From: Thermus sp. 2.9
GTDB lineage: Bacteria > Deinococcota > Deinococci > Deinococcales > Thermaceae
Direction of reading: 5' to 3'
Assembly: GCF_000794385.1 (NCBI RefSeq)
Contig: NZ_JTJB01000010.1
Coordinates: 48,931-112,930, forward strand
Length of the DNA: 64,000 nt
Positions 2,321 through 22,381 of this stretch are shown piece by piece (the first letter of the stretch is position 1; the number at the start of each line of letters is the position of its first letter). The notes beneath the pieces are model-generated. The model saw only the letters and a program-made list of their open reading frames with translations. It had not been told where the DNA came from and searched no databases. The translations under genes were made by a program, and so were the position numbers.

Positions 2321-2330
2321 AAGGAGCGCC

Positions 2331-2660: not shown

Positions 2661-2662
2661 CC

Positions 2663-7587: not shown

Positions 7588-7601
7588 GGGCGGCAGGCCC
7601 A

Positions 7602-7630
7602 GGGGGGCCGGGGGTCCTCCCCGGCCCCCC
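7602..7630 (+). terminator. Intrinsic terminator after the head operon
   Basis: A 12-bp GC stem (GGGGGGCCGGGG with its complement, loop GTCCT) is followed by TTCTTC. It closes the terminase-portal-F transcription unit and insulates it from the rnpB block. Confidence 0.65.
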
Positions 7631-7880: not shown

Positions 7881-8262
7881 GGGGTGCCCCGGGACGGGGG
7901 CGCGGTCGCGCCCAAGGGCCAACCCCCTTGGGTGAGGAAAGTCCGGGCACCATAGGGCGGGGTGCCAGGTAACGCCTGGGCGGGGTAACCCGACGGAAAG
8001 TGCCACAGAGAAGAGACCGCCAGCGGCCGGGGCTTCCCCCGGTGCGGGCAAGGGTGAAACGGTGGGGTAAGAGCCCACCGCGCCTCCTGGAAACAGGGGC
8101 GGCACGGCAAACCCCACCCGGTGCAAGGCCCGGTAGGCAGGAAGGGCTTGCCCGGCCCGCCAGAACCTGCGGGATGGGCCGCTTGAGGCCGGTGGCGACA
8201 CCGGTCCCAGAGAGATGACCGCGGAAAACAGAACCCGGCTTACGCCCCGTCCCGGGGCCCCC
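7881..8262 (+). ncRNA. rnpB: RNase P RNA, complete copy carried inside the prophage
   Basis: This is the catalytic RNA that removes 5' leaders from pre-tRNAs. Type-A hallmarks are present: GAGGAAAGTCC (7934-7944) and ACAGAACCCGGCTTA (8228-8242), whose segments form the P4 catalytic helix, and the internal AAGGGTGAAACGGTGGGGTA region near 8050. P1 is a perfect 14-bp helix between 7886-7899 and 8245-8258. Compared with the truncated host copy at 22051-22381 (minus strand), the two look roughly nine-tenths identical by eye, with differences clustered in helices and often compensatory, so this is a diverged xenologue and not a recent duplicate. It is followed by its own terminator. By structure it should be functional, and it is the only complete rnpB in this window. 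Confidence 0.95.
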
Positions 8263-8273
8263 ATGAGGGGGCC
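8256..8273 (+). terminator. Terminator of the prophage rnpB
   Basis: A 7-bp stem (GGCCCCC, loop ATGA, GGGGGCC) is followed by TGGGCTTT. The 5' arm overlaps the last bases of P1, so transcript end and RNA maturation are close together. Confidence 0.55.
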
Positions 8274-8323
8274 TGGGCTTTCCAAGGCGAGCTATGACAC
8301 GGGAACGAGTTTTGATGATTGTA

Positions 8324-9214
8324 ACCCAAGTTGCTACCTATCCCCTGGATCTGAAAAAATAGTGGCCGCTATGCTTTCCCGTCTCATAGCGGCCTTTTGC
8401 ATTATAGACGACGCCCTGCAAGCCATGGGCTACAAGGATGACCCCCAAGCCAAAACGCCCGCCTCCGCCATCCTCACCCTCGCCCTCCTTGCCGCCCTAG
8501 AGTTCGGCGGCAAGCACAACAAGGCCCTGGCCCTCGCCAAAGACCTCGGCCTCTTCACCCACGTCCCCTCCCCAAGCCGCTTCAACCGCAGGCTCCACGC
8601 CCTCTACCCCCTCCTTCTCCCCCTCCTCCACCTCCTGGCCCAGGTCTGGAAGCACCTCCACCAGGCCCAGGCGTATGCCTTGGACACCTTCCCCCTCCCC
8701 GCCTGCGAGAACATCCGCGCCCCCCGCTCCCGCCTCTTCCCGGACAAGGCCTACCGCGGCTTCATCCCCAGCAAGCGGGTCTACTTCCACGGCCTCAAGC
8801 TCCACCTCCTGGTGGACGACGGGAAGTTCGTCCACGAGGTGAACCTGACCCCGGGGAGCTTCCACGACCTCGCTTCGCTTCTCCTCCTTCCCCTGGACCT
8901 TCCCGAGGGGGCGGAGCTCTACCTGGACCGGGGGTACGAGAGCCATCTGTACGAGGACCTCCTCCGGGAGGCCCAGGAGGTTGTTCCCATGGTCATCCGC
9001 AGGAGGAACAGCCGGCGGTATCTCCCTTGGATGCAGTACCTGGCCATCGTGGGGCGGAGGGTGGTGGAGACGGTGGGGAGCATGCTCCATCACCTCTTCC
9101 CCAGGCGCATCCACGCCGTGACCCAGGAGGGTTTCGTCATCAAAGTTCTCACCTTCGTCCTGGCCCATAACATCAGTCTCCTGACCCAGAAGATGGCTGG
9201 GTAGCAACTTGGGT
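8324..9214 (+). mobile_element. IS982-family insertion sequence, 891 bp
   Basis: Terminal inverted repeats ACCCAAGTTGCTACC (left end 8324) and the complement GGTAGCAACTTGGGT (right end 9214) bound one transposase gene. A 7-bp target duplication GATTGTA flanks it (8317-8323 and 9215-9221). The target was the extreme 5' end of the following gene, whose ancestral start lay at 8315 (or 8294). Both ends and the transposase are intact, so it may be active. Confidence 0.9.
8371..9204 (+). CDS. IS982-family transposase
   Basis: This 277-residue DDE transposase starts at ATG 8371, with GTG 8362 as an alternative. The N-terminal helical domain is followed by the catalytic core: first Asp in YALDTFPLPAC (about 110), second in ELYLDRGYES (about 190), and the glutamate in VVETVGSMLHHLFPRRIHAV (about 232), the ending typical of IS982. 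It fills nearly the whole element and shows no frameshift. Confidence 0.9.
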   Translation: MLSRLIAAFCIIDDALQAMGYKDDPQAKTPASAILTLALLAALEFGGKHNKALALAKDLGLFTHVPSPSRFNRRLHALYPLLLPLLHLLAQVWKHLHQAQAYALDTFPLPACENIRAPRSRLFPDKAYRGFIPSKRVYFHGLKLHLLVDDGKFVHEVNLTPGSFHDLASLLLLPLDLPEGAELYLDRGYESHLYEDLLREAQEVVPMVIRRRNSRRYLPWMQYLAIVGRRVVETVGSMLHHLFPRRIHAVTQEGFVIKVLTFVLAHNISLLTQKMAG

Positions 9215-10109
9215 GATTGTAAAGACCTATCCTAGTCCAAGTAAGAAGTATGGGGAGCTAACGTGTACGGCAGGTATACGTCTCCGCGATAACGAGTGGA
9301 TCCGGATCTACCCATACCCCTTTCGCTTGTTGGATAACGACTACCGCTTCAAAAAGTACGATATCTTGGAGCTCCCTCTGGAAAAGTCATGGGGGGATCC
9401 GCGCCCGGATAGCTATCGGCTCGTGGACCCCACTCAAGTCGGGTGCGTGGGGCACTTGGAGGCGGATAAGTACTGGGAGGCCCGGATGCAGTATATACGC
9501 CCGACGGTTATTCCCAGCGTTGAACAGTTTGAGGCCCAGATGGTGCGGAGGGTTCCGGTGGGGTCAGCAGGAGTTGGCTTGTTTGGGGATGATTTTTCGG
9601 GCCCCCAAAGGGGTAGGGTGCAGTGGGGGAAAACAATAGGAGTCGTGGCTGTGGTTCAGGGTTCGGCCAGAGTGGAAGTGAAGTATGTGGGCGAGGACTG
9701 GCCGGAGGAGGACAGAGCCAAACTAGCGTCCCCAGGAGTTTGGGAGGAGGGGCTTTTTGAAGGGGAGTCAGGGGCATCCCTACGGAAGCCCAAAGTGCCA
9801 CTTCGTTTTTGCCCTTACAAGTTTTATCTAAACTTCACCGATATAAAGGGCGTTTCGCGCAAGAAGGTGATCACCGATTGGGAAATAATACGTCTTTACT
9901 TCAGGGAAGAGAAGAGACTTGGTAGCCGAGAGAAGGCTGTTGAGAGCGTCAAGTCCAAAGTAGAGAAAGAGATCTTCGGCCTGGATAGGGAAACCTACAT
10001 CGTTGTGGGAAGCATCCACCACCACTATGCCAAACCTCAGCTCTATGCGGTTATAGGGTTTATCTGGCCGAAGAAGAAGCCGGAACTGCCCCTTTTCTCA
10101 GGTCTGTGA
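9213..10109 (+). CDS. Conserved protein of unknown function paired with DUF488; start rebuilt by IS insertion
   Basis: The 298-residue protein reads MIVKTYPSPSKKYGELTCTA at its N-terminus and has a C-terminal signature FCPYKFYLNFTDIKG, then VITDWEIIRLYF, then YIVVGSIHHHYAKPQLYAVI. I recall a family with this pattern as a partner of DUF488 proteins, but its biochemical role is not known to me. The IS982 insertion replaced the ancestral ATG at 8315 by a GTG (9213-9215) made from the last IS bases plus the target duplication, so the same MIVK frame is kept, although any native Shine-Dalgarno is gone. It is visibly AT-richer than its surroundings, a sign of transfer. It converges on, and overlaps by 50 bases, the DUF488 gene. 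Confidence 0.65.
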   Translation: MIVKTYPSPSKKYGELTCTAGIRLRDNEWIRIYPYPFRLLDNDYRFKKYDILELPLEKSWGDPRPDSYRLVDPTQVGCVGHLEADKYWEARMQYIRPTVIPSVEQFEAQMVRRVPVGSAGVGLFGDDFSGPQRGRVQWGKTIGVVAVVQGSARVEVKYVGEDWPEEDRAKLASPGVWEEGLFEGESGASLRKPKVPLRFCPYKFYLNFTDIKGVSRKKVITDWEIIRLYFREEKRLGSREKAVESVKSKVEKEIFGLDRETYIVVGSIHHHYAKPQLYAVIGFIWPKKKPELPLFSGL

Positions 10110-10530
10110 CCCCTTGAGCCCAACCGGTTTCTACTAGGGCTCTGCCCACCAGGGAGCGGTGGCATTGGCTGGGGTCTTCCTCAAAACAAAGAAGGCACAC
10201 CCGGTATTCCCTAAGCAGGAGTCCAAGCTCCTCTAGGGCTCCTACCCGTTGGGCGAGAAGCTGAAGGTAGCTTCTCTGGTAGGTCTGCCAATCCCCGCTT
10301 TTTTGGAGGCAAAGGCGCAGTGGTTTAGGGGCCCCCAGCTCGGGGAAATGCCTGTAGAAGATGCCTTCCTTAGCCAGGGCTTCTTTCAGGGGGGTTTTAG
10401 AGAACCCCCTTTTCCGGCTAAGGGGGAGATCCCTGACATCGGCCACCAAGTTCACCCCATTGGATTTGAGTATGTCCAAAAAAGTGTTTAAGCTTAACCC
10501 CTCGTAGCCGATGGTCAGGACATCTGACAT
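10060..10530 (-). CDS. DUF488 family protein
   Basis: The 156-residue protein has the DUF488 signatures: LTIGYEGLSLNTFLDILKSN at the start, VADVRDLPLSRKRGFSKTPL (about 32-51), and a late CLLCFEEDPSQCHRSLVG (about 112-129), whose Cys/His cluster is the most conserved part. The molecular function of DUF488 is unsettled; in genomes it is often near defence or nucleic-acid genes. It starts at ATG 10530 under a nearly leaderless promoter, converges with the preceding gene, and has the same lower GC, so the two look like one acquired pair. Confidence 0.8.
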   Translation of the reverse strand: MSDVLTIGYEGLSLNTFLDILKSNGVNLVADVRDLPLSRKRGFSKTPLKEALAKEGIFYRHFPELGAPKPLRLCLQKSGDWQTYQRSYLQLLAQRVGALEELGLLLREYRVCLLCFEEDPSQCHRSLVGRALVETGWAQGVTDLRKGAVPASSSAR

Positions 10531-10536
10531 ATTCAG

Positions 10537-10564
10537 ACAATATCTGGGGGCCGAAGCTTGTAAA
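10537..10564 (-). promoter_or_regulatory. Promoter of the DUF488 gene (leaderless)
   Basis: On the minus strand TTTACA (10564-10559) and TATTGT (10542-10537) are separated by 16 bases. The ATG begins 6 bases after the -10 box, so the transcript should start at or next to the start codon. Confidence 0.5.
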
Positions 10565-10623
10565 GCACGACCGCTAGTGCCTCCTGGGCAATTTGCCCCT
10601 ATATTTTGGGGCGGGCCGTCAAG

Positions 10624-11194
10624 CTAATACTCGCACCAGTGCGGCCACTTCTCTCCCGGCGCGCCGTGGCGGGTGAAGACCAGCATCAGGTCTCCCACGT
10701 CCCCCACGTGGTAGCCCACCAGGTCCACGGTCACGGGGCCGAAGTTGCGGTTGAACTGGCCCACCCCGTTTTCCTGGATGCGCTGCACGCGATCGCCAAA
10801 CCAGTTGACTAGGTTCTGGCTGGTCTCCTGGGAGAGTCCGAGGCACACCCCTTCTATGAAGCCCACCAGATAGCCGAAGCCATAGAGGGCCCGGGAGAAG
10901 GAAGGGCTTCCCTCAAAGCGCACGCTCAGCACGTTCAGATAGCGCTTGCCTTTGGGGGCGGCGAAGAAGAGCACGTACTGAAAGACCTCGTCGTCCTCGC
11001 TTTTGGCCCACACCAGGTACTTCCTCTCCGCCGAGCGCTCCGGGGGCGGTGGAGGAAGCTTTTCCTCCTGGACCCGCACGATCGGCTCCCTCTTTTTGAG
11101 ACTAGCGATTAGGTCGGCGATCTTTTACGGACCTCGCCTGCGCGCTCCCTGCCAGAAGCAGAGCCACCAGGACCAGGCTCCACGTTGCTTTCAT
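10624..11194 (-). pseudogene. Secreted protein gene with one frameshift
   Basis: From ATG 11194 the frame encodes a clear signal peptide (MKATWSLVLVALLLAGSAQA) and then hits a stop. One base later in the frame it continues as KIADLIASLKKREPIVRVQE and on through ERKYLVWAKSEDDEVFQYV to the end at 10624. The 571-base span is one base too long, and the extra base is most simply one T of the TTTT run at 11123-11126 (an A-run on the coding strand). The restored product would be about 189 residues, exported, with no recognised domain. It is the last gene of the foreign block. A sequencing error would restore it. Confidence 0.6.
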
Positions 11195-11195
11195 G

Positions 11196-11413
11196 GGGCC
11201 TTTTATAAGGAAATCGCCCGCCGCACGGGAGTGCCCAGCAGCACCTTGCACGGGATGGCCCACCGCCTCGGCGTGGCCCACCTCCGCTCTGCCAAGCGCC
11301 TTCCGCCTGTTCAGCCCACTCCCGACCTCGCCCGCCTCCTGGCCCAGCAGGCCCAGCTTCTCCTGGAAGCGGCCCGCCTTCTTGCCACCCCCCCACCCTC
11401 CGGGGTAAGATAG
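11196..11413 (+). pseudogene. 5'-truncated phage helix-turn-helix gene
   Basis: An open frame without a plausible start begins at the block edge with FYKEIARRTGVPSSTLHGMA, a helix-turn-helix, then HRLGVAHLRSAKRL, a coiled segment LLAQQAQLLLEAARLL and the ending TPPPSGVR. The upstream part is missing because the foreign block joins here, so I read it as the remaining C-terminal part of a phage DNA-binding gene. Its end resembles that of the gene at 1567-2013, and both lead into the same promoter-hairpin module. Confidence 0.5.
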
Positions 11414-11472
11414 GGCTAAGGTGGGATAACTGCCCCCGGGGAAGCCCGGGGGCAAAGCTTTTGGGAGGGCGT
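11382..11472 (+). promoter_or_regulatory. Phage promoter plus leader hairpin, copy 2
   Basis: TTGCCA (11382-11387), 18 bases, TAAGAT (11406-11411), then a leader with a 9-bp GC stem and GAAG loop (11432-11453), then AAAGCTTTTGGGAGG leading into ATG 11473. The stem differs in sequence from copy 1 (1982-2071) but keeps shape and loop. It should drive the peptidase-tape measure-baseplate operon. Confidence 0.6.
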
Positions 11473-11661
11473 ATGGTGCGGTACAAGGCCGAGCTAAGCC
11501 ACGGCGAGGTGGAGTTCACCGCCGAGACGTTGGAAGCCCTCGCCGCCGAGATTCGGGAGTTCCGGCGGGCCCTGTTGCGGGCCGAGGCCGAGGGCTCCGA
11601 CCGCCTCGCCTGGGCGGAGCACGTCAAAGCGCCGGAGGAAGGGGCTCGTCCCTCCCGGTAA
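11473..11661 (+). CDS. Small phage protein, 62 aa, first gene of the tail operon
   Basis: ATG 11473 follows GGGAGG (11463-11468). The product reads MVRYKAELSHGEVEFTAETL, then a helix (LEALAAEIREFRRALLRAEA) and a polar tail. It is small, charged and probably soluble; no family is recognised. Position just before the tape measure region might suggest a tail-assembly accessory, but this is only context. Confidence 0.5.
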   Translation: MVRYKAELSHGEVEFTAETLEALAAEIREFRRALLRAEAEGSDRLAWAEHVKAPEEGARPSR

Positions 11662-11668
11662 AGCCCGT

Positions 11669-12301
11669 ATGCGTGTTCTCTGGCCCCTCCCGCCCTCTCC
11701 AGACAAAAACCGCGTGGACGCGAGCTTTTTGGACCCGCGCTACCCCGAGTGGCGGAAGGCCCAGGGCCTCGCCCCTCACCAGCACCCCGGGGTGGACCTT
11801 AACCTCTCCGGCTCCTCCGGGGACGCCGACCTGGGCTACCCGGTGGTGGCCGTGGCTGAGGGGCGGGTGGTCCACAGCGCCTTCCACCGGGTTTGGGGCC
11901 ACGTGGTCCTGCTGGAGCACGACCTCCCCGGCCTCGGGCGCTTCTGGACCCAGTACGCCCACCTCCTCTTCCGGGTGGCCCGGGAGGGGGACTACCTCTT
12001 CGCGGGCGAGCCCGTGGGGGCCATCGGCAAGGGGGACCCGGCCAGGCCGTACCTCGCCCACCTCCACTTTGAGGTGCGGCGGGCCCCCCTGGAGGCCGAC
12101 TTCTGGCCCGGGAGCAACGTGGACCTCATCCGGGAGAAGTACCTGGACCCCGAGGCTTTCCTAAAGGCCCACTACGCCCCCGCCCGCCGCTTCTACCGGG
12201 TGCGGGGGGTCTTCTGGGCCCGGGGCCGGCAGGAGGTGGAGGGCGTGGTCGTGAACCTGGAGGAACCCGACCGGGTTCAGGTGGCGGTGAGGAAGCTGTG
12301 A
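11669..12301 (+). CDS. M23-type metallopeptidase, probable tail-associated cell-wall hydrolase
   Basis: The 210-residue protein carries the M23/LytM zinc-site motifs: HPGVDLN (about residues 43-49) and HLHFEV (about 131-136), with a beta-rich core between (VVAVAEGRVVHSAF, YAHLLFRVAREG). M23 enzymes cut peptidoglycan cross-links. There is no signal peptide, and the gene lies directly upstream of the tape measure, so I infer a virion-associated lysin that opens the wall during DNA entry. Its stop overlaps the tape measure GTG. Confidence 0.75.
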   Translation: MRVLWPLPPSPDKNRVDASFLDPRYPEWRKAQGLAPHQHPGVDLNLSGSSGDADLGYPVVAVAEGRVVHSAFHRVWGHVVLLEHDLPGLGRFWTQYAHLLFRVAREGDYLFAGEPVGAIGKGDPARPYLAHLHFEVRRAPLEADFWPGSNVDLIREKYLDPEAFLKAHYAPARRFYRVRGVFWARGRQEVEGVVVNLEEPDRVQVAVRKL

Positions 12302-15109
12302 ACGCCCTCTTCCGCCTCCAGGTGATGCTGGACCTCGTGGACCGCATGACCGGTCCCCTGGGCCGGGTGGGGGAGGGCCTGCGTAAGGTGGAGGAGCTTT
12401 CCCACCGGGCGGACCTCGCCCTGCAACGCTTGGGGGCGGGCCTTTCCGTGGCCGGGGCCGGGGCGGCCCTCGCCGCGCCCCTGGTCCTCGCCACCCGGGC
12501 GGCGATGGACTTTGAGGACGCCTTCGCCGACGTGCGCAAGGTGGTGGGACGCCCCCGCCCCCGCCCTCATGGCCCTCCAGCGGGAGCTTTTGGGCCTCAC
12601 CCGGGTCATCCCCATGACCGCCCGGGAGCTCACAGAGATCGCCGCCGCCGCGGGCCAGGCGGGCATCCCCTTCGGGGAGCTCGTGCGCTTCACCCAGGAC
12701 GCGGCCCGGGTGGGGGTGGCCTTCGGCATCACCGCCCAAGAGGCGGGGGACGCCCTCGCCAAGTTACGGAACGTCCTGGAGCTCACCCAGCCCCAGGTGA
12801 TGCGGGTGGCGGACGCCATCAACTACCTCTCCAACAACATGGCCGCCACCGCCCCCGAGATTTTGGACGTCCTCCGCCGGGTGGGCGGCACAGGGAAGCT
12901 CCTGGGGCTCACGGGTCAGCAGATGGCGGCCTTCGGGGCGAGCCTCCTCGCCCTGGGCACCGCCCCCGAGGTGGCGGCCACGGGCCTCAACGCCCTCTTC
13001 CAGCGCTTGGCCACCGCCCCCGCCCAGCCCAAGGCCTTCCAGGAGGCCCTGGCCCGCCTGGGCCTCACCGCGCGGGGGCTCCAGGAGGCCCTGAGGCGGG
13101 ACGCCGCCGGGGCCATCATGGACTTCCTACGCCGCCTCAGGGCGGTGCCCGACCAGCTCACCGTGCTTTCCGACCTCTTCGGTATGGAGTACGCCGACGA
13201 CATCGCCAAGCTGGTGGGCTCCTTGGGCACCCTGGAGAAGGCCTTCAGCCTGGTGCGAAGTCCGGCCGCCTACACGGGGAGCGTCCTCGCCGAGTTCCAG
13301 AACCGCTCCGCCACCCTGAGGAACCAGCTCATCCTGCTCCGGAACGCCCTGGAGCGCATCTGGATCACCCTCGGCAACGCCCTCCTGCCCGTGGTGACCC
13401 CGGTGGTGGCCCGCCTCGCCGACCTCCTGAACCGCGTCTCCGACCTCCTGGACCGCTTCCCCCTCCTCCGGGGGGCCCTCGTGGCCGTCACGGCCACCCT
13501 CGGGGGGCTTCTGGTAGTGGGCGGCTTCCTGGTCACGGGGCTCGCCGCCCTGGGCTTCGCCGCCACTCAGGCCCGGCTGGGCCTCCTCGCCCTCCAAAGC
13601 GGCCTCGCCGGCGCCCTCAGGCAGGCGCGCCTCCTCTCCCTGGGCCTCGCCCTCCTGCGGGGGGAGATGGCCCGGCTGGGGGCGGTGGGGCTCCTCCGGG
13701 GGGCCTTCGGCCTCCTCGCCCAGGGGGCCTTCCGGGCCGGGCAGGCGGTGCTCTTCTTGGGGCGGGCCCTCCTCCTCAACCCGGTGGGGCTGGTCCTTGG
13801 CGCCCTCGCCGGGCTCGTCTACCTCTTCCGCCAGGCCTGGGGGGCGAGCGAGAGCTTCCGCAAGAGCGTTCTCGGCACCCTCCAGGCGGTGCGGAGCGCC
13901 TTCGCCCCGGTCCTCGCCGAGTTCCGGGGCCTGGGGGAGGCTCTGGCCGGGCTCTTCCGCCCCCTCGGGGGGGCCATCCAGGCCTCCCTGGCCTCCGCCC
14001 AGGCCGCCTGGGACCGCTTCGGCTACGCCCTGGGGTATGGCATCGGCTTCCTCTTCGGCCTCCTGGAAGCCCTCGTCGTCCGCCTCGCCCCCATCTTCGG
14101 GGAAGGCCTCATGGGCCTGGTGCGCATGGTCCGGGGCTTTGTGGACCTGGTGGTGGGCCTCTTCACCCTGGACCTGGACCGGGCCCGGCTGGGGGCCTTG
14201 CGCATCTGGGAGGGGCTTAGGGCCGTCCTCTCTGTGCCCATCCGGGTGGGGGGCGTGGTGGTGGACGTGGCCCTGGGGGCCCTGCGGCGCCTCTGGGAGG
14301 CGGCGAGCGCCCGCTTCCCCGCCCTGGCCCGGCTGGGGGAGGGGTTGGGGGCCGCTTGGCGGGGTCTGGTGACGGGGGCCGAGGCGGTCTTCCGGCTCCT
14401 CCAGACCGTGGTCCTCTCCGGCATCGGGGCCCTGCGGGCCCTCCTCCAGGGGGATTTCCGCCTGGCCCTGGCCTTTGCCGAGAGGGGGTGGCAGGCTCTC
14501 AAGGCCCTGCTCTCCTTGCCCCTGCGCCTCGGGGGCCTTCTCTGGGACGCGCTCCGGGGCGGGCTTTCCCAGGCCCTCTCCTTCGTGCGCTCCCTGGCGA
14601 GCCCCTTCATGGAGGCCGGGAGGGCCATCGTCCAGGGCCTCGCCCAGGGCATCAAGGCCCTGGCCCTGGCCCCGGTGAACGCCGTGAGGGAGATCGGCGG
14701 CCAGGCCCTGGCCACCCTGAAGCGCCTCCTCGGGATCCGGTCCCCCTCCCGGGTCTTCATGGGCCTCGGGGCCATGACGGCCCTGGGCCTCGCCGTGGGG
14801 CTCCAGAACATGGCCCCGGCGGTGCAGGAGGCGGCCCGGGCCCTGGTCCCCGCCCTGGAGGTGCCTGCTCCTCGGATGCCGGAGCTTCCGCGGGTTCCCG
14901 TGGTGGCAGTGCCCCAAGCCCCCACTCTGGAAGCGCCCGCCCTCACGGCGCCCGAGCCGCCTGCCCCTTCCCCCGCCCCCGAGAGGAGAGGGGAGAGGCC
15001 CGTGGTCCAGGTGCGGATTGAGCGGGTGGAGCTTCCCGGGGTGCGGGACGCGGAGGAGTTCGTGGAGGCCTTGAAGCGGCTCTTCCTGCCCTACGTGGAG
15101 GAGGTGTAG
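12298..15109 (+). pseudogene. Tail tape measure protein, frameshifted near 12550
   Basis: Translation opens at GTG 12298 (MNALFRLQVMLDLVDRMTGP) and reads to DFEDAFADVRKVVG. The frame then changes at the GGG/CCCCC-rich stretch around 12545-12560 and continues as ALMALQRELLGLTRVIPMTA to TAG 15107. The 2812-base span is one base too long (or two short). The roughly 936-residue product has phage tape measure features: alternating helical and strongly hydrophobic segments (ALVAVTATLGGLLVVGGFLV), TMP-family motifs (AAAAGQAGIPFGELVRFTQD) and a Pro-rich C-terminus (APALTAPEPPAPSPAPE). It corresponds to Mu gp42. The indel could be a sequencing error. Confidence 0.75.
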
Positions 15110-15123
15110 CGAGGAGGTGTAGC
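15098..15123 (+). repeat. Tandem 13-bp duplication at a gene junction
   Basis: GAGGAGGTGTAGC is repeated back to back at 15098-15110 and 15111-15123. The first copy contains the tape measure stop codon; the second supplies a GAGGAGG ribosome site for the GTG start at 15124. It looks like a recent slippage duplication that separated two previously overlapping genes. Confidence 0.7.
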
Positions 15124-15717: not shown

Positions 15718-16451
15718 ACCTCGTCCACGTCCCCAAACCCGAGACCCAGAAGGGCACCCCTGCGGGCCTCGTCTTCCACGAGAGCCTGCACGTGCCCTGG
15801 CGCACCCTGCACCTCCAGGGGCACGTCTACCTCGAGGGCACGGCCCGCCCCTCCGACGAGGCCACTAAACCCTTCCAGCCTGGGGAGGCGGTGCGGCTCA
15901 CCCTCGAGGGCCCCCTCTTCCAGGGCGCCCTTCAGGGCCTCCTCTCGGCCACGGAGGGGGTGGCCTGGGGCCTCCCCGAGTGGCGGCGGGAGGTGGACCC
16001 CCAGGGCTTCCAGGACGCGAAGGCCGAGGAGGTGGCCGGGTGGATCAAAGGCCAGGTGGGGGGGAAGGCCCTCTGGGGCTTCCAGACCGAGCCCAAGCGC
16101 CACTACGCCCTCCCCCGCGTGCGGGCCTGGGAGGGGGTCCTCATGGTCCTCAAGGCCTGGGGCGTGGAGGCGGTGATGCACGAGCTGGACGGGGGGGTCC
16201 TCTACGCCGGGCCCGAGGGGAAGAGCCCCCACTACGGGGTGGTCCACCGGGTGGGGGAGGAGGTGGCCTGGGTGCGGCCGTTGTCCCCGGGCCGCTACGG
16301 GCTTCGCATGGCCCCTCTCCCCGCCCTTAGGGTCCTCCACCTGTTGCGGGTGGACCACCCTGCCTACCGGGGGGCCCTCCGGGTGGAGGAGCACCGCCTG
16401 GTCCTCACCCCCAAGGAGGCCTACCACGAGGTGATCGGCCGTGAGGAGTGA
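15714..16451 (+). CDS. Baseplate hub-like protein (Mu gp44 / late control D position)
   Basis: The 245-residue protein begins at ATG 15714 (MNLVHVPKPETQKGTPAGLV). It is beta-rich, with a central helical part (EEVAGWIKGQVGGKALWGF) and conserved-looking segments (WEGVLMVLKAWGVEAVMHE, then LRVLHLLRVDHPAYRGA). Gene order (tape measure, gp43, gp44, gp45 V, gp46, gp47 J, gp48) argues for a gpD/gp44-type hub at the tip of the tail tube. The next GTG overlaps its end by 11 bases. Confidence 0.6.
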   Translation: MNLVHVPKPETQKGTPAGLVFHESLHVPWRTLHLQGHVYLEGTARPSDEATKPFQPGEAVRLTLEGPLFQGALQGLLSATEGVAWGLPEWRREVDPQGFQDAKAEEVAGWIKGQVGGKALWGFQTEPKRHYALPRVRAWEGVLMVLKAWGVEAVMHELDGGVLYAGPEGKSPHYGVVHRVGEEVAWVRPLSPGRYGLRMAPLPALRVLHLLRVDHPAYRGALRVEEHRLVLTPKEAYHEVIGREE

Positions 16452-17094
16452 TGCCCTGAAGACCGCCCTCCGCAGGCTCGTGGAGGCCCTCTGGCCCGAG
16501 CTCGCCCACCGCACCCACCTGCCCCACAAGGCTCGGGTGCTCCGGGTGCACTCCCAGGCGGGGGTGGCGGGTCCCCCTGGGGAGGTGCGCTACAGCGTGG
16601 ACGTGGAGCCCCTGACCCCCGAGGGCAAGCCCGACCCCACCCGTCCCCCGGAGATCCGGGACGTGCCCCTGGACGTGCCCTGGATGGGGCGGGAGGGCCG
16701 GGGGGTGTACGCCCTGCCCGAGCCCGGCACTCTGGTGCGCATCGCCTACTACGACGGCAACCCCGCCTACCCCTATGTGGACGGGGTCCTCTCCGAGGGG
16801 AAGGCCGTGGTCCAGGTGGAGCCCGGGGAGTACCTGGTGCAGAAGGACACCGACACCTGGGTGCGCCTCAAGCCCGACGGGGAGATTGAAGTCCAGGCCG
16901 CCCCCGGGGTGGTCCTCCGCCTGAAGCCGGACGGGACCGTGGAGCTCTTGGGCACCGCGGTGGTGCGGGTGGACGCCCCCCGGGTGGAGCTCGCCGGGGG
17001 CGGCCCCCCCGTGGCCCGGGTGGGGGACCCGGTGCAGGTGGGGAGCGCCGTGGGCCAGATCATCGGGGGCAGCGCCAAGGTCTACTCGGGGTGA
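16441..17094 (+). CDS. Baseplate assembly protein V (Mu gp45-like spike)
   Basis: This 217-residue protein starts at GTG 16441. It has an OB-fold-like N-terminal half (KARVLRVHSQAG, then VPWMGREGRGVYALPEPGTL, a typical gpV motif). A beta-helix-like repeat follows (VQVEPGEYLVQKDTDTWVRL, GVVLRLKPDGTVELLG, VVRVDAPRVELAGGG), then a PAAR-like end (PPVARVGDPVQVGSAVG). Such trimers form the membrane-piercing spike of contractile tails. The frame is intact. Confidence 0.82.
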   Translation: MRSDALKTALRRLVEALWPELAHRTHLPHKARVLRVHSQAGVAGPPGEVRYSVDVEPLTPEGKPDPTRPPEIRDVPLDVPWMGREGRGVYALPEPGTLVRIAYYDGNPAYPYVDGVLSEGKAVVQVEPGEYLVQKDTDTWVRLKPDGEIEVQAAPGVVLRLKPDGTVELLGTAVVRVDAPRVELAGGGPPVARVGDPVQVGSAVGQIIGGSAKVYSG

Positions 17095-17097
17095 GCC

Positions 17098-17460
17098 ATG
17101 TACCGGGACTGGAAGTGGCAGGACGGGGACATCCTCCTCTCCCCCAGGGGGGACGCGGCCCTGGCGGAGGGGATGGAGGTCCTCAGGCAGGACCTCCTCG
17201 CCCGCCTGGTCTCCCCCCGGGGGAGCCACTGGGCCTTCCCCCTCGAGGGCTCGGACCTCCTGGACTACGTGGGGGCCCCCCTGGACGACCTCACCCGCAC
17301 CGAGGTCCTGCAGGAGGCCGAGAGGACCCTTCTGGAAGACCCCCGGGTCCTGGAGGCTTGGGGAGAGTGGACGGAGGGGGGCCTCCGCCTCACCGCCCGC
17401 CTCACGGAGGAGGCCCTGAGCCTCCTCCTGCCCTGGCCCCTGGAGGTGACGCGTGGCTGA
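17098..17460 (+). CDS. Baseplate wedge protein W-like (Mu gp46 / GPW_gp25)
   Basis: The 120-residue product starts at ATG 17098 (MYRDWKWQDGDILLSPRGDA). It has the gp25-like lysozyme-derived fold pattern: GMEVLRQDLLARLVSPRGSH, YVGAPLDDLTRTEVLQEAER, and a C-terminal beta segment (EGGLRLTARLTEEAL). It lies between gpV and gpJ as in Mu and P2, and initiates sheath polymerisation in that family. Confidence 0.75.
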   Translation: MYRDWKWQDGDILLSPRGDAALAEGMEVLRQDLLARLVSPRGSHWAFPLEGSDLLDYVGAPLDDLTRTEVLQEAERTLLEDPRVLEAWGEWTEGGLRLTARLTEEALSLLLPWPLEVTRG

Positions 17461-18490
17461 CCTGATCCCGCCCCTACCCGACCTGGAGGAGGAGGTGGCG
17501 CGGCTCGTGGCCCTGCTGCCCGAGGGCTTCCCCGTGCGGGACCCGGACGCTTATAGTGTGTTCGGCACCTACCTGCGCCTCGCCGCCCAGGCCTCCCTGG
17601 AGGCCCGCGCCTTCGCCCGGGCCCTGGCTCCCCAGCTCCTGGTCACCCGGGCCACGGGGGCCTGGCTGGACGAGCACGCGAAGGGGATGGGCCTGGAGCG
17701 GAAGCCCGCCCGTCCCGCCCGCCTCCGCCTCCGCTGCGTGGCCTCGGCCTCCGGTACCTTCCCCCCTGGGGCCCTGGTAGGCCTGGGGGAGCTCCGCTAC
17801 CGGGTGCAGGGCCCCTACGCCCCCGAGGCCCTGGTGGAAGGGGTGAGCGAGGGGGTGGGAAGCCGCTACACCCTGCCCGTGGGGGCGGTCCTCTACCCCG
17901 TGACCGTGGTGCCCGGCCTGGAGCGCCTGGAGGTGGTGGAGGTCCTGGAGGCGGGGCAGGACGAGGAGACGGACGAGGAGCTCCGGGCTCGCCTCCTCCT
18001 CTCCTGGCCCGCTCTGAGCCGGGGGAGCACCTACCACGCTTACATGAGCTGGGCCCTGGAGGTGCCCGAGGTGCGGAAGGTGAAGGTTCTGGACCAGCAC
18101 CCCCGGGGCCAGGGCACCGTGGACGTGGTCATCGCCCCGGCCCGAGGCCTCCCCTCCCCCGAGCTCATCGCCCGGGTCCAGGCCCTGGTGGACGAGCGCC
18201 GCCCTGTGACCGCGGACGCCCTGGTCCGGGGCCCCACCCCTAGGACCCTCAACCTCTCCCTCCGCCTGCACCGCCTGCCGGGGAGCCCACCCCTGGAGGC
18301 CTGGCGCTCCTGTGCCCTGGACTTCCTCCACGGCCTGGACATCGGGGAGCCCTTCTGGCCCTCCCGGCTCATGGACCGCTTGCACGACTATGGGGGCCTC
18401 GAGGCGGTGGAGGTCCTCACCCCGGCCGCCCCCGTGGTCCCGGCCCAGGACGAGCTCCTCGTCCCCGGGGAGGTGAGCGTAGTTGAGTGA
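17453..18490 (+). CDS. Baseplate J-like protein (Mu gp47)
   Basis: The 345-residue product starts at GTG 17453. Baseplate_J hallmarks are visible: an early GTYLRLAAQASLEARAFA, the GAWLDEHAKGMGLERKPAR segment (about 66-84), a beta domain (FPPGALVGLGELRYRVQG), and EETDEELRARLLLSWPALSR (about 163-182), followed by VRKVKVLDQHPRGQGTVDVV. The protein builds the baseplate wedge. The frame is intact, with an 8-base overlap to the gene before and after. Confidence 0.88.
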   Translation: MADLIPPLPDLEEEVARLVALLPEGFPVRDPDAYSVFGTYLRLAAQASLEARAFARALAPQLLVTRATGAWLDEHAKGMGLERKPARPARLRLRCVASASGTFPPGALVGLGELRYRVQGPYAPEALVEGVSEGVGSRYTLPVGAVLYPVTVVPGLERLEVVEVLEAGQDEETDEELRARLLLSWPALSRGSTYHAYMSWALEVPEVRKVKVLDQHPRGQGTVDVVIAPARGLPSPELIARVQALVDERRPVTADALVRGPTPRTLNLSLRLHRLPGSPPLEAWRSCALDFLHGLDIGEPFWPSRLMDRLHDYGGLEAVEVLTPAAPVVPAQDELLVPGEVSVVE

Positions 18491-19145
18491 GCTCGCCGAG
18501 GCCTTCTACCGCCATCTGCTGTCCCTCCTCCCCCCGGGGCGCTACCCTCGGGAGGGCGGGGCCGCGGACGGGACGGTGCGGATGCTGGGGGCCCTGGAGG
18601 CCTCCGCCGTGGAGGAGACCCTGGCCCTCTTCCGCCAGGCCCTGCCCCAGTACGCCGAGGGGAAGTTCCTGGAGGAGGTGGGGCGGGGGAGGGGGCTGTC
18701 CCCGTTCCGGGAGGAGTTGGAAGCCGCCTTCCGGAATCGGGTGGTGTATGCCACGCACTTCTGGCTCCTCGGGGGCACCCTGCCCGGGATGCGTCTGTGG
18801 CTGGAGGCGGCGGGCTACGAGGCCCACATCCACGAGCACTTCCGAGACGACCCCTCCATCTGGGCCGAGTTCTCCCTTTACCTCTGGCCCTACCGCCCAG
18901 AGTTCACCACGGACCGTTGGGACGACGGGGTGGGAGCGTGGGACGACGACACCTCCTGGGACTACGCCCTAAACGGGGTGGAGCTGGAACGCATCCCCGC
19001 CCTGGTGCGGGAAGTGAAGCCCGCTCATGCCCGCGTGCGATCCATCTACTACATCCCGGGGCCCCGAGATGTTTGGGATGACGGAGCGGTGTGGGATGAA
19101 GACGGCGATGTCTGGGGTCCTGAGCCCATACAGATATACCCATAG
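18483..19145 (+). CDS. Baseplate/tail protein, Mu gp48-like (DUF2313, YmfQ)
   Basis: The 220-residue protein starts at TTG 18483 (MSELAEAFYRHLLSLLPPGR), the usual opening of YmfQ/DUF2313 tail proteins, with YAEGKFLEEVGRGRGLSPFR later. The C-terminal third contains an unusual Trp/Asp repeat (RWDDGVGAWDDDTSWD, then VWDDGAVWDEDGDVWG) that probably contacts the fibre. It sits directly upstream of the tail fibre gene. Confidence 0.75.
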   Translation: MSELAEAFYRHLLSLLPPGRYPREGGAADGTVRMLGALEASAVEETLALFRQALPQYAEGKFLEEVGRGRGLSPFREELEAAFRNRVVYATHFWLLGGTLPGMRLWLEAAGYEAHIHEHFRDDPSIWAEFSLYLWPYRPEFTTDRWDDGVGAWDDDTSWDYALNGVELERIPALVREVKPAHARVRSIYYIPGPRDVWDDGAVWDEDGDVWGPEPIQIYP

Positions 19146-19994
19146 GAGGTAAGGATGCCGAAAAGACTAACACCTGAAGACCGCTGGGAGACTGACTTTG
19201 AAGTGCCTGTCCCAGGTGAGGGGCGGCGCATCGGGCCGCTGGAGGTGCTCTTCCAGCGCCTTCTGAACCGCACTGAGCGCCTGAAAAACCGCGTTGCGGA
19301 CATCCTGGGCCTGCCCTGGGACGCCACGCCGCCAGACACGCTGGCCGGGCTCGCGGGGCGTGTAGGCACCTTGGAAACCAATCAGGGTGGCACAGCCCTC
19401 TCTGCCCACCGCACCGCCCCAGTATTAGACCACCCAGACGGCAGTGTCACGGCGGCGAAGCTAGATGCGGTCCGCAACGCCCCTACCATCACGCCTTCCC
19501 CCGGAGACTGGCTCCTCGGGGGGCTGGCTAGCGGTACCGGGGTAGGCAAGTTGCCCATCGGCCAAGCCAACGGCGTGCCCCTCCTCAATGCCAGCGGTGC
19601 CCTCGCGAGCGCCGACGCGTACCTGAGCAGGGGGTCTGTGACCAGCGCCGTAGACTGGAACACCCTCACCGATGCGGGTACATATGAGATAGCGAGCGGG
19701 GCCTTCGGCACCGGCAGCGCCAACACGCCGCCCGCCGTGACCCAGCAGGGGCACCTGCTGGTTCTCAGAACATTGGAGGCCACCACCCAGGTGTACGTCC
19801 CTAAAAGCGCCGACCCTGGCATCTATTGGCGGCAGTACGCCGGGGGCACCTGGTCTTCCTGGGTCACGGCCGGTGTGATGTATGGGTCCAACTCTAACGG
19901 CTCCTACATTCGGTTTGCGGATGGAACGCAGATATGCTGGGCCTCTCACGACCCGACATCGTTTGGGAGCATGCAGACTGGATATGACACCAAC

Positions 19995-21172
19995 CTCAGT
20001 ACACGTCAAAACGTGGGACCACCCCTTTAGGATGGACCTGCGCCCACGTGGATGGGCAGGTACCCATAGGAGGTGGTCCCCATGGAACAGCTTACCCCAC
20101 TCATCAACGCCTTGAAGCGATACTGGAAGGCCGACCTCAGGCGCCTCACCTTCCTGGCCGCCCTGGTGATGGCTCTGGTCACCGCCCGCACCACAAGCGG
20201 CCCCAGACTCGCTCTTTCCCTCGGCTCCATAGCCAGCCCTGACCCCCGCTCCGCCTACCGAAGGTTCCAGCGGTTCTTGGCCTGGCCGGGGCTGGACGGG
20301 GAGGGCTATGCCCGCTTCATCTTCGCCCTCCTCCGACCCCAAGGGCTCCTCCTGGTCATGGACCGGACCGAGTGGGAGCTGGGGAAGAGCAAGGTCAACC
20401 TCCTGATGCTGGCCTTCCTGTACCAAGGCCTGGCCGTCCCCCTGTTCTGGAGCTTCCTTCCCCACGACGGCAACTCCTCCACCCCCGAACGCATCGCCCT
20501 GATGGAGAGGGCCTTGGCTTTCCTGAGGGCCCACTTCCCCCACCTCCGGGTGGAGGGTTCCTGGCGGATCGGGAGTTCATAGGGGAGGCGTGGTTCCGGT
20601 ACCTGGAGGAGAAGGGCATCCCCCGGTGCATCCGAATCAAGGCCAACACCCGGATGTGGCGGTTGGGCTCGGGCCCTCGGGCCTGGGAGCTCTTTGCCTC
20701 CCTGAAGGTGGGAGAGAGCCGGGTGCCCAGGCGGCGGTACTGGGTCTACGGGCGGCGCATGTGGGTGGTGGGGTTGCGCCTTGGGGTCCGGGAGTGGCTG
20801 ATTGTGGCTACGGACCTGGACCCTCACCGGGTGCTGGAGGTGTACGGGCTCAGGTGGGGGATAGAGCGGCTCTTTGGGGCCCTGAAGGGGCGGGGATTTG
20901 ACCTGGAGGCCACGCACGTGACGCGGGGGGAGAGGCTTTCGCGGCTTTTGGTCCCCTTGAGCCTGGCCTTCGTGTGGGCGTTTCGGACGGGGCTTGTGCT
21001 GCACCGGGTGCGTCCGGTGAGGCCCAAGAAGCACGGGAGGCTGGGACAGAGCCTCTTCCGGGCGGGGCTGGACCTGCTCACCCTTTGGGCGCTTGCCCTC
21101 TGGGGTGCAGGGGGAGGAAGGCGCGGAAGTCCCTTGGGGTTATGCCCTATGGAGGTTTTGACGTGTACATAG
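19995..21172 (+). mobile_element. IS4-type insertion sequence, about 1178 bp, inside the tail fibre gene
   Basis: Imperfect 18-bp terminal repeats (16 of 18 match) contain GTACACGTCAAAAC at the left end (19999-20012) and its complement at the right (21155-21168). A 9-bp target duplication GACACCAAC flanks the element (19986-19994 and 21173-21181). The size, repeats and duplication length fit the IS4 family. Confidence 0.88.
20082..21172 (+). pseudogene. IS4-type transposase, frameshifted
   Basis: From ATG 20082 (after TAGGAGG) the frame encodes SAYRRFQRFLAWPGLDGEGY and the first catalytic Asp in GLLLVMDRTEWELGKSKVNL. At 20555-20562 (GTGGAGGGTTCC) the frame shifts by one lost G, after which FLADREFIGEAWFRYLEEKG (second Asp) and YGLRWGIERLFGALKGRGFD (catalytic Glu) follow. 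The full length would be about 363 residues. Because all motifs survive, the indel is recent or a sequencing error; programmed frameshifting is not usual in IS4. Confidence 0.75.
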
Positions 21173-21390
21173 GACACCAACTACAAGTACAAGAACAAAA
21201 CATGGGTCTTCCCGGTCGCATTCATCACCGCTCCTGCAGTTACCACAGGTGGCGATGTGGTGTGGTCGAGGGTGGATGTCATAAACGCCTTTGAGGCTAC
21301 CACAACCCAATGTACCTTGGAAGCCGGGCAATATAACACTACCGACGTGGATGTCAGTGCATTTTACACCCTCGCCATCGGGAGGTGGAA

Positions 21391-21693
21391 ATGATTTGGG
21401 TTAGGTACATCCCACAGGTAGGGCTGCCCGGCCATACCCTGCGCTATAGCTGGACTGGGAGGGTCCTCACCGCCACCTTATACCGGGGTGAGGAGGTGGT
21501 GGGCCAAGAGACCTACGACCTCTCCGTCCTCCAGCCTGGTGATGAAGTGGACTGGGTGGAGCCTGAGACGCTCCAGTTCTCCCCTCTCATCTCTGCCCGG
21601 TGCGCCGAGGACAGGACGCTGGAGGTGGTCCTCCTCCGCTGGTATGAGGGGGTTGAACCCCCTGAGTTGGGCGAGGAGGTGCTGGATGGCTAA
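21391..21693 (+). CDS. Small tail-fibre-associated phage protein, 100 aa
   Basis: ATG 21391 (MIWVRYIPQVGLPGHTLRYS) overlaps the fibre stop codon; GTG 21385 is an in-frame alternative. The sequence is beta-rich (WTGRVLTATLYRGEEVVGQE, LEVVLLRWYEGVEPPELGEE). No family is known to me. The position right after the fibre and before a tail assembly chaperone suggests a fibre-attachment or chaperone role. Confidence 0.55.
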   Translation: MIWVRYIPQVGLPGHTLRYSWTGRVLTATLYRGEEVVGQETYDLSVLQPGDEVDWVEPETLQFSPLISARCAEDRTLEVVLLRWYEGVEPPELGEEVLDG

Positions 21694-21931
21694 GCTCATA
21701 GTAAAAACCCGAAAGGACCGCCTCCGGGAGGCCTGGGCGGCTCTCCGGGCCGAGCGGGACCACCGCCTGGCCGAGACGGACTGGATCGTGGCCCGGGCCT
21801 ATGAGCGGGGGGAGCCCGTGCCGGAGGCCTGGGCGGCCTACCGGCAGGCTCTCCGGGACCTCCCGGCGCAGCTCACGGACGAGCAGGTTCTGGCCGGGGA
21901 TATCCTGTGGCCGGAGCCTCCAAAGCTATAA
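21686..21931 (+). CDS. Tail fibre assembly chaperone-like protein
   Basis: ATG 21686 overlaps the preceding stop. The 81 residues contain LREAWAALRAERDHRLAETD followed by WIVARAYERGEPVPEAWAAY and RQALRDLPAQL, the helical pattern of phage tail assembly chaperone proteins that cap fibres (the APC family). It is the last phage gene before the right end. Confidence 0.75.
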   Translation: MAKLIVKTRKDRLREAWAALRAERDHRLAETDWIVARAYERGEPVPEAWAAYRQALRDLPAQLTDEQVLAGDILWPEPPKL

Positions 21932-21966
21932 CGTCCACACTCAATCAGGCTATGCATAAGCACTCA

Positions 21967-22050
21967 CCTTACTAACCGGAGCATGACTGGACTTGGTCAA
22001 AACTGACCTAGAGCGTGAGCGCTTACTGACCTAAAGCATGACGCATGACA
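21967..22050 (+). other. Right end of the Mu-like prophage with three transposase-binding repeats
   Basis: Three related direct repeats lie next to the terminus: CTTACTAACCGGAGCATGAC (21968-21987), ACTGACCTAGAGCGTGAGCG (22002-22021) and CTTACTGACCTAAAGCATGA (22022-22041). This resembles the R3-R2-R1 array of MuA sites. The phage ends with the dinucleotide CA (22049-22050), as Mu-type ends do; the next base is inside the host RNase P RNA gene. The first 5 host bases, TCTGG, would be the expected target duplication with a copy beyond the unseen left end. Confidence 0.75.
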
Positions 22051-22381
22051 TCTGGGGCCGGTGTCGCCACCGGCCTCAAGCGGCCCATCCCAGGGGTTCT
22101 GGCGGGCCGGGCAAGCCCTTCCCCTCTACTGGGCCTTGCACCGGGTGGGGTTTGCCGTGCCCCAGCCTGTTGCCAGGCCAGGCGGTGGGCTCTTACCCCA
22201 CCGTTTCACCCTTACCCGCACCGGGGCCAAAGCCCCGGCCGCTGGCGGTCTATTTTCTGTGGCACTTTCCGTCGGGTTACCCCGCCCAGCCGTTAGCTGG
22301 CACCCTGCCCTATGGTGCCCGGACTTTCCTCACCCAAGGGGGGTTGGCCCCTCGAGCGCGACCGCACCCCTATCCCGGGGC
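22051..22381 (-). pseudogene. rnpB: Host RNase P RNA gene, 3'-truncated by the prophage
   Basis: Reading on the minus strand from 22381, the sequence follows the prophage rnpB copy closely: P1 5' strand CCCCGGGATAGGGG, GAGGAAAGTCCGGGCACC, CCGACGGAAAGTGCCACAGA, AGGGTGAAACGGTGGGGTAA, and GGTGGCGACACCGG. It stops at ...CCCAGA where phage sequence begins. The last 50 or so bases are absent, including the ACAGAACCCGGCTTA element that supplies the 3' strands of P4, P2 and P1. Without the P4 strand the molecule cannot form the catalytic core. The lost piece is expected beyond the left prophage end, outside this window. The differences from the internal copy show this is the resident host version. 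Confidence 0.9.

What the first reader, a model, noticed from the sequence alone, without database searches (positions are those of the whole stretch)
7881..22381. Prophage sits in the host RNase P RNA gene and carries its own complete rnpB
Seen: the minus-strand rnpB at 22051-22381 matches the P RNA from P1 through ...CCCAGA and then stops exactly at the phage terminal CA; its last 50 or so bases are gone. A complete, diverged rnpB lies inside the prophage at 7881-8262 with a perfect 14-bp P1 and its own terminator. Known: the missing 3' segment supplies one strand of the P4 catalytic core and rnpB is essential in bacteria. Inference: the mobile element replaces an essential catalytic RNA with its own copy, so the host cannot lose the prophage block without losing tRNA processing. 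This would be an RNase P RNA swap or addiction system. The compensatory helix differences argue for a xenologue from another Thermus lineage and not for duplication.
Basis: partly seen in the sequence, partly recalled or inferred. Interest (0 to 1): 0.95.

Follow-up and report, generated by a model that had tools for sequence, protein, structure and literature searches.

The report
Phage breaks and replaces RNase P
A Mu-like virus lodged in the chromosome of a Thermus hot-spring bacterium has split the host's RNase P RNA gene and carries a complete copy of its own that likely does the essential work instead, and the same arrangement occurs in 6 of the 27 Thermus genomes searched.

Summary
The minus-strand host rnpB stops at 22050. 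Its missing 3' part lies 35.9 kb to the left, outside the window, and a 5-bp duplication (TCTGG) frames a 35,861-bp TG...CA element: a Mu-like phage with a complete rnpB at 7890-8258. No third copy was found.

It is not a one-off. Of 27 Thermus genomes, the same 6 carry the phage transposase and a broken rnpB; the other 21 have one rnpB each. Break points differ. Phage copies keep the P RNA fold, and identical ones sit in hosts whose own rnpBs differ, so rnpB travels with the phage.

New here: distant relatives (transposase 40-48% identical) in two other genera mostly sit in the same mraZ-rnpB interval and orientation, beside an intact rnpB. Left ends lie 178-396 bp from the mraZ start in 14 of 15 measurable cases. 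In Thermus that distance falls in or at the edge of rnpB; elsewhere between genes. Best reading: a transposable phage steered to the mraZ upstream zone, whose Thermus branch breaks rnpB and brings a replacement. Targeting, expression and addiction are inferred. Exceptions: one prophage 199 kb away, three off-site metagenome junctions, one reversed insertion.

The parts
1..22050 (+). right-hand 22.05 kb of the 35,861-bp Mu-like prophage; the left 13.8 kb (transposase A, ATPase B, head and tail genes, left end) lie outside the window at C10:35120-48930
7890..8258 (+). complete phage-borne rnpB (class A RNase P RNA)
   Evidence: RF00010 269 bits; 98 of 102 Rfam pairs formed
7874..7879 (+). TAGAAT, predicted -10 box of the phage rnpB; present before 10 of 12 phage copies
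   Evidence: prediction only
22051..22377 (-). 5' part of the broken host rnpB; the 3' part is at C10:35068-35119
22049..22055 (.). right phage end (CA at 22049-22050) and target duplication TCTGG (22051-22055), matching TCTGG before the left end at C10:35115-35119
2842..7333 (+). packaging genes: small terminase 2842-3375, large terminase 3365-4648, Mu-type portal 4648-6159, Mu F-like 6143-7333
8371..9204 (+). insertion-sequence transposase ORF (DDE_Tnp_1) directly after the phage rnpB
11714..18490 (+). M23 peptidase 11714-12301, tape measure 12569-15109, baseplate J 17453-18490 and neighbours
22688..22903 (+). rpmE (ribosomal protein L31), host flank on the right; mraZ is the host flank on the left (L006:1449-1883, minus)

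Best explanation
In this Thermus genome a 35.9-kb Mu-like prophage has split the host rnpB gene and carries its own complete rnpB, which is predicted to supply the cell's RNase P RNA in place of the broken copy. Shown: TG...CA ends, a 5-bp duplication, a MuA-like transposase, a MuB-like ATPase, and Mu-type head and tail genes. Shown: in six Thermus genomes the same phage family with its own rnpB has split rnpB, at differing positions and with the right end towards the 5' part of rnpB. Shown: relatives in two other genera mostly lie in the same mraZ-rnpB interval in the same orientation but outside rnpB, with left ends at similar distances from mraZ. Inferred: insertion for lysogeny is steered to a zone about 180-400 bp upstream of mraZ, probably by something bound at the mraZ operator (host MraZ, or in one branch a MraZ-like protein that the phage encodes). 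Inferred: in Thermus this zone lies within rnpB, so only phages that bring an rnpB leave viable lysogens, and the host then depends on the prophage.
For: Both ends, duplication and complete copy. Transposase and broken rnpB in exactly the same 6 of 27 Thermus genomes. Five different right-junction positions among the six (322, 189, 277, 202, and 228 shared by G033 and G034), same orientation in 6 of 6. A random insertion would hit a 370-bp gene of a 2.3-Mb genome with p about 1.6e-4. Complete rnpB in 6 of 13 metagenome phage contigs and a cut-off one in a seventh. Phage copies form 96-98 of 102 Rfam pairs; the copies of G029 and G046 are identical while their hosts' own genes are not. Relatives with 40-48% identical transposase sit 98-545 bp downstream of an intact rnpB, same orientation, in G002, G009, G017, G018, G022. 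Left end to mraZ start 178-396 bp in 14 of 15 measurable cases; SD 70 bp from mraZ against 207 bp from the rnpB 3' end, n = 12. A rnpB-less relative (G056/G057) is not in rnpB. A MraZ homologue is encoded a few genes after B in G005, G007, G018, G020.
Against: G001 carries a clean insertion (TTGCG) 199 kb from mraZ. Three of 11 metagenome junctions of the Thermus phages are off-site: L104 (=G057, rnpB-less), L162, L166. L119 shows rnpB in the opposite sense and at its 5' side. Left and right duplications do not match in G033, G034, G009 and G018. The Thermus phages have no MraZ-like gene by tblastn. G056/G057 has a transposase region about 97% identical to that of rnpB-inserted relatives, so the transposase alone does not set the place. 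The comparison of landmarks rests on few independent insertions. Expression, essentiality and steering were not tested.
Confidence: 0.7

Rival explanations
1. Insertion is random as in Mu. Lysogens with the phage in rnpB are simply the ones that last, because they cannot lose the prophage without losing RNase P RNA (survivorship, no targeting).
For: rnpB is essential and the phage brings one. The rnpB-less G056/G057 type is found elsewhere although its transposase region is about 97% identical. Three off-site metagenome junctions exist. Mu-like phages are mostly random inserters (PMC5977238, passages).
Against: It cannot explain the relatives in two other genera that sit beside an intact rnpB in the same orientation without an rnpB cargo. 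No rnpB-carrying prophage was found elsewhere in 27 Thermus genomes. The prophages look young: no stop in the best aligned stretch of 20 core genes in four other lysogens, and rejoined host genes still form 96-98 of 102 pairs, leaving little time for survivorship to act against odds of about 1.6e-4.
Confidence: 0.17
2. The phage is steered by rnpB itself (its DNA hairpins, its transcript or a protein on it), not by mraZ.
For: rnpB is next to the element in all on-site cases with both sides held. Hairpin-rich BIME repeats are hotspots for some transposable phages (PMC5977238, passages). L119 has two ends 63 bp apart in rnpB.
Against: Positions scatter by SD 207 bp relative to the rnpB 3' end against 70 bp relative to mraZ (n = 12), and shift from inside to outside rnpB between genera while the distance to mraZ stays alike (7 against 6 values, p 0.95).
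Confidence: 0.1
3. The phage rnpB is a passenger acquired for lytic growth (more tRNA processing), and the rnpB location is secondary.
For: Some large phage-like contigs carry rnpB, four of five with tRNA genes nearby. Phages seem to have acquired rnpB more than once.
Against: The genus-wide coupling of cargo and broken target in 6 of 6 lysogens; relatives that do not break rnpB do not carry a second one.
Confidence: 0.05
4. Assembly artefact in this draft genome.
For: The genome is a 62-contig draft.
Against: Same structure in five other genomes and in separate metagenome contigs, with matching 5-bp duplications at different positions.
Confidence: 0.01

Closest known systems
Bacteriophage Mu and other transposable phages (saltoviruses)
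   Same: MuA-like transposase, MuB-like ATPase, TG...CA ends, 5-bp duplications, Mu portal and Mu F proteins
   Different: Known members insert mostly at random with some hotspots (PMC5977238, passages); here lysogens cluster at one locus in one orientation, and the Thermus branch carries rnpB
Prophage 2 of Thermus aquaticus Y51MC23 and the prophage of Thermus sp. 2.9 (PMC4605624)
   Same: Many genes annotated Mu-like; prophage 2 is 36,093 bp; the paper notes identical flanks, mraZ and L31, which are the flanks here; probably members
   Different: Term searches of the main text for rnpB, RNase P and ribonuclease P gave 0; I did not examine those two genomes by name
Tn7 and Tn7-like transposons (attTn7 at glmS)
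   Same: Preferred chromosomal site, fixed orientation, 5-bp duplication, DDE transposase plus AAA+ ATPase; works alike in sparing a gene in the non-Thermus genera (Tn7 details recalled)
   Different: A virus with Mu head and tail genes; no TniQ/TnsD hit in the ORFs scanned; broad window instead of one position; the Thermus branch breaks the neighbouring gene
Phages that integrate into a gene end and restore it (tRNA, tmRNA, icd; recalled)
   Same: The prophage compensates for the host gene it enters
   Different: Not integrase-based; the gene is cut inside at varying points, and the replacement is a whole, diverged gene deep within the phage

Membership tests
Mu-like transposable phage | MuA-type DDE transposase with adjacent MuB-type AAA+ ATPase | tested here: met
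   phrog_310 7.7e-46 and phrog_296 3.6e-39; B matches PDB 'ATP-dependent target DNA activator B' 7.6e-5; A matches TnsB chains best in PDB
Mu-like transposable phage | TG...CA ends with 5-bp target duplication | tested here: met
   TCTGG in G000, and matching pairs in G029, G045, G046, G017, G022, G002, G001; not matching in G033, G034, G009, G018
Mu-like transposable phage | Mu-type virion genes | tested here: met
   Portal_Mu 1e-103, Phage_Mu_F 1.8e-19, terminase, tape measure, baseplate J, tail sheath
Mu-like transposable phage | near-random choice of lysogenic site (customary trait, not taken here as defining) | tested here: not met
   6 of 6 Thermus lysogens and 7 of 8 resolvable relatives lie next to mraZ
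Bacterial class A RNase P RNA (RF00010) | full covariance-model match above the gathering score with conserved core | tested here: met
   269 bits against cut-off 100, model 1-367
Bacterial class A RNase P RNA (RF00010) | catalytic activity on pre-tRNA | not testable with these tools
   needs an assay
Tn7-like transposon | TniQ/TnsD target selector | tested here: inconclusive
   no such Pfam or PHROG hit in the ORFs scanned, 37 of 55 predicted by my count; distant forms could be missed
Integrase-type prophage restoring its target gene | tyrosine or serine integrase and att core overlapping the gene end | tested here: not met
   transposase ends and duplication instead; no integrase hit in the ORFs scanned (same calls)
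Addiction system | loss of the element kills or cripples the cell | not testable with these tools
   predicted from the essential role of rnpB (established knowledge); needs a deletion test

The most novel reading that the evidence does not exclude
A lineage of Mu-type transposable phages has evolved a fixed landing zone, beaconed by MraZ bound at the operator of the cell-division gene mraZ. Where that zone overlaps rnpB, as in Thermus, the phage practises obligate break-and-replace lysogeny: it destroys the host's essential RNase P ribozyme gene, installs its own, and so swaps RNase P RNAs between species and makes itself incurable.
Probability: 0.45. Interest if true: 0.95.

Novelty: new variant of a known kind. 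Interest (0 to 1): 0.92.

Why it matters
Mu-type phages are textbook random inserters. Here the sequence record points to a transposable phage family with a preferred chromosomal address, and to a branch that offsets the damage by carrying a replacement for an essential catalytic RNA. If right, RNase P RNA, usually treated as a vertically inherited core gene, has been taken over by phage copies in 6 of the 27 Thermus genomes searched, and rnpB comparisons between Thermus species could mislead. It also gives a natural experiment on how an AAA+ target activator is directed to one place, with a concrete candidate (a phage-encoded MraZ homologue near the B gene in one branch).

Tried and rejected
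Assembly artefact: rejected by recurrence. Third rnpB elsewhere: none found. Duplication within the host: rejected; in the four lysogens whose host gene could be rejoined, the phage copy is closer to another species' rnpB than to the host's own. One single origin of the phage rnpB: not supported; phage copies fall in several groups among host copies (5 label changes on the tree, at least 3 forced by well-supported branches). Fixed orientation as an absolute rule: rejected because of L119. rnpB as the sole landmark: disfavoured by the distances. MraZ-like protein as the general targeting factor: not supported for Thermus, where tblastn finds only the host gene. A repeat beside the phage rnpB promoter (about 7830-7855) looks by eye like the end repeats with a one-base gap, but an ungapped scan allowing 9 mismatches did not report it, so I do not claim it. 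Origin of the 102-base flank of G057: no match in 50 Thermaceae genomes. Right-end scan TGWCCTN8GACGCRTGACA in viral contigs: 0 hits. INPHARED: five weak transposase matches only, all under 60% identity and covering less than 80%.

Rows dropped before the junction count: of the 16 contigs, the 13 without similarity to the element, and of the 9, the 5 whose DNA inside the match does not resemble the right end (L160, L161, L163, L164, L165).

Literature: no report of rnpB in a Thermus prophage, or of an rnpB-carrying transposable phage, was seen in the listings (open-licence PMC only; listings and abstract starts). PMC4605624, PMC5977238 and PMC10293859 were seen as passages from term searches, not read whole.
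Full report
OBSERVATION. Rfam finds two class A RNase P RNAs in the window: a complete one at 7890-8258 (+) and one on the minus strand from 22377 whose true match ends at 22051. The genome (2.40 Mb, 62 contigs, 97.98% complete) has no third copy. The missing 3' segment of the host gene sits at C10:35068-35119, 13.8 kb left of the window. The two breaks read ...TCTGG|TGTAATGG and ...GCATGACA|TCTGG, so a 35,861-bp element with TG...CA ends and a 5-bp duplication lies inside rnpB.

THE ELEMENT. It is a Mu-like phage. The left part, outside the window, holds tail sheath, major head protein, head protease, a repressor-like protein, a MuA-like transposase (L006:10406-12355) and a MuB-like ATPase (L006:12366-13160). 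The window part holds terminase, Mu portal and Mu F genes, then rnpB, an insertion sequence, an M23 peptidase, tape measure and baseplate genes. rnpB lies at element position 21,701-22,069; the DNA just downstream of it differs between phages.

RECURRENCE IN THERMUS. A search of 50 Thermaceae genomes, 27 of them Thermus, with RF00010 found extra, broken rnpBs only in G000, G029, G033, G034, G045 and G046, all Thermus; the other 21 Thermus genomes have one match each. The transposase occurs in exactly those six (93-97% identical in four others, 65% in G034). The left-end motif occurs in five of them and in no other of the 27. Right-junction positions in rnpB (G030 numbering) are 322 (G000), 189 (G029), 277 (G045), 202 (G046) and 228 (G033 and G034, shared). 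Duplications match in G000, G029, G045 and G046. In G033 the left end lies in the rnpB terminator and in G034 at position 329, so these two have lost or exchanged DNA on the left side. In all six the right end faces the 5' part of rnpB.

METAGENOME PHAGES. Thirteen IMG/VR contigs encode the transposase. A complete rnpB is found in 6 of 13, and G061 shows the start of one near its contig end. G056, which spans the position, lacks it; the other five contigs end before the position (read). G056 follows the rnpB-carrying G054 up to just before the -10 box and then diverges, as if rnpB had been lost. G057 is 99.99% identical to G056 over 19.8 kb, and its left end abuts 102 bp of unidentified DNA, not rnpB. 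Of 11 junction-bearing contigs of this phage type, 8 lie in rnpB (L103, L105, L106, L107, L116, L119, L123, L133) and 3 do not (L104, which is G057; L162, in DNA similar to stretches of other Thermus genomes and prophages; L166). L119 is odd: right end, 63 bp of rnpB in the opposite sense, left end.

THE PHAGE rnpB. Projected on the Rfam structure of one phage copy, the 12 phage copies form 96-98 of 102 pairs, the 21 uninserted Thermus host copies 95-98, and the four rejoined host genes 96-98. Own host against own phage copy: 87.1-91.2% identical in those four lysogens. The phage copies of G029 and G046 are identical although the two hosts' own genes fall in different parts of the tree. On a tree of 42 sequences (12 phage, 26 host, 4 rejoined) the phage copies fall in several groups among hosts, many forks being weakly supported, so the gene moves with the phage and seems to have been re-acquired. 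A TAGAAT box precedes 10 of the 12 phage copies; expression is not shown.

THE LARGER FAMILY. A search of 111 genomes of the phylum with the transposase found 21 with a match: the 6 Thermus, 9 in two other Thermaceae genera (40-48% identical; genera unnamed here), and 6 weak ones that I did not follow. In G002, G009, G017, G018 and G022 the element lies between mraZ and an intact rnpB, left end towards mraZ, right end 545, 104, 164, 98 and 128 bp from the rnpB 3' end. G005 and G007 also start next to mraZ. G020's left end is not in its contig. G001 is an exception: a clean insertion (TTGCG duplication) 199 kb from mraZ and about 290 kb from rnpB.

WHICH LANDMARK. Left ends lie from the mraZ start codon: Thermus 178, 224, 232 (L107), 236, 283, 358, 369 bp; others 181 and 300 (G007, two left ends), 210, 214, 250, 255, 324, 396 bp. 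That is 14 of 15 measurable cases; G001 is the fifteenth, and the other metagenome junctions, on-site and off-site, hold no measurable mraZ start. For the 12 with both measures the SD is 70 bp from mraZ and 207 bp from the rnpB 3' end; Thermus and the others do not differ in distance to mraZ (7 against 6 values, p 0.95). In 19 of 21 uninserted Thermus genomes the rnpB 3' end is 183-194 bp from the mraZ start (772 bp in G043; rnpB inverted in G036); in the three uninserted genomes of genus g4 measured, the gap is 316-348 bp. So one landing zone falls inside rnpB in Thermus and between genes in the others (G033's left end, in the terminator, is the edge case). In G000 five TGGGN-like boxes (one reads TGGAA) spaced 10-11 bp lie 106-148 bp before the mraZ start; that such repeats bind MraZ is recalled knowledge.

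A CANDIDATE STEERING PROTEIN. Four prophages of the other genus (G005, G007, G018, G020) encode a MraZ-like protein a few genes after the B gene (Pfam MraZ 5.9e-29 for that of G018). It is absent from the Thermus phages by tblastn. That host MraZ or this homologue recruits the transposition complex is my inference.

MECHANISM. Shown: where the phage is, what it carries, the recurrence and the shared geometry. Inferred: (i) lysogenic insertion is steered to the mraZ upstream zone; (ii) in Thermus this usually breaks rnpB between its 5' part and the 3' strand of P4; (iii) the phage copy takes over RNase P; (iv) the prophage then cannot be lost. No stop was seen in the best aligned stretch of 20 core genes in G029, G033, G045 and G046 (the G029 sheath is covered to 62%; 12 of the 20 were found in the stretch held of G034), although the genome search notes one TGA in the G034 transposase. 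With the undecayed host fragments this argues that insertions are recent, which weakens the pure-survivorship rival.

KNOWN WORK. The T. aquaticus Y51MC23 paper (PMC4605624; [quoted passage not shown] 2.9 share the flanks mraZ and L31, which are the flanks here; its main text has no hit for rnpB or RNase P. Pseudomonas transposable phages show mostly random insertion with some hotspots (PMC5977238; passages). The Tn7 target-selector survey (PMC10293859) has no hit for mraZ or rnpB (term search). Ten library searches showed no report of this arrangement in their listings; subscription papers and preprints were not covered.

VERDICT. A real, recurrent and unusual system: a transposable phage with a preferred address that, in Thermus, breaks an essential ribozyme gene and carries a likely replacement.

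Noticed in passing
L132, L138, L141, L143, L157 (stretches of 100-497 kb IMG/VR contigs); L159 (Microcystis phage MaAM05, 273,876 bp): RF00010 matches above the cut-off in large phage-like contigs, with tRNA genes nearby in four of the five IMG/VR stretches: other viruses may carry an RNase P RNA gene.
   Followed up: partly
G019 (same family, 3 contigs, 99% complete): No RF00010 match in two searches, the only one of 50 Thermaceae genomes; cause unknown.
   Followed up: partly
L133:1040-1404 and window 22000-22377: Rfam scores the broken host rnpB as a full-length match (211.8 and 225.7 bits) by stretching the model over the phage end, so automatic annotation could call both intact.
   Followed up: yes
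L119:3948-4107: Right end, 63 bp of rnpB in the opposite sense, left end: two insertions 63 bp apart, or a joined form.
   Followed up: partly
G033 (C1:111858 and 111877), L105, L106, G034, G007: Left ends repeated in tandem, by 8 to 42 bp in four and by two different left ends 119 bp apart in G007.
   Followed up: no
G007 C68: Two sets of late genes with a repressor-like gene and a transposase fragment between them: probably two prophages in tandem at the mraZ-rnpB locus.
   Followed up: partly
G018, G005, G007, G020 prophages: Phage-encoded MraZ-like protein, 43-47% identical to host MraZ over the aligned part, shortly after the B gene.
   Followed up: partly
window 7830-7855: Stretch before the phage rnpB promoter that resembles the end repeats by eye; not found by an ungapped scan.
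   Followed up: partly
window 10060-10530: DUF488 gene on the minus strand inside the prophage, after the insertion sequence.
   Followed up: no
G001:C1:1885101-1916820: Related prophage with a clean TTGCG duplication far from mraZ and rnpB.
   Followed up: partly
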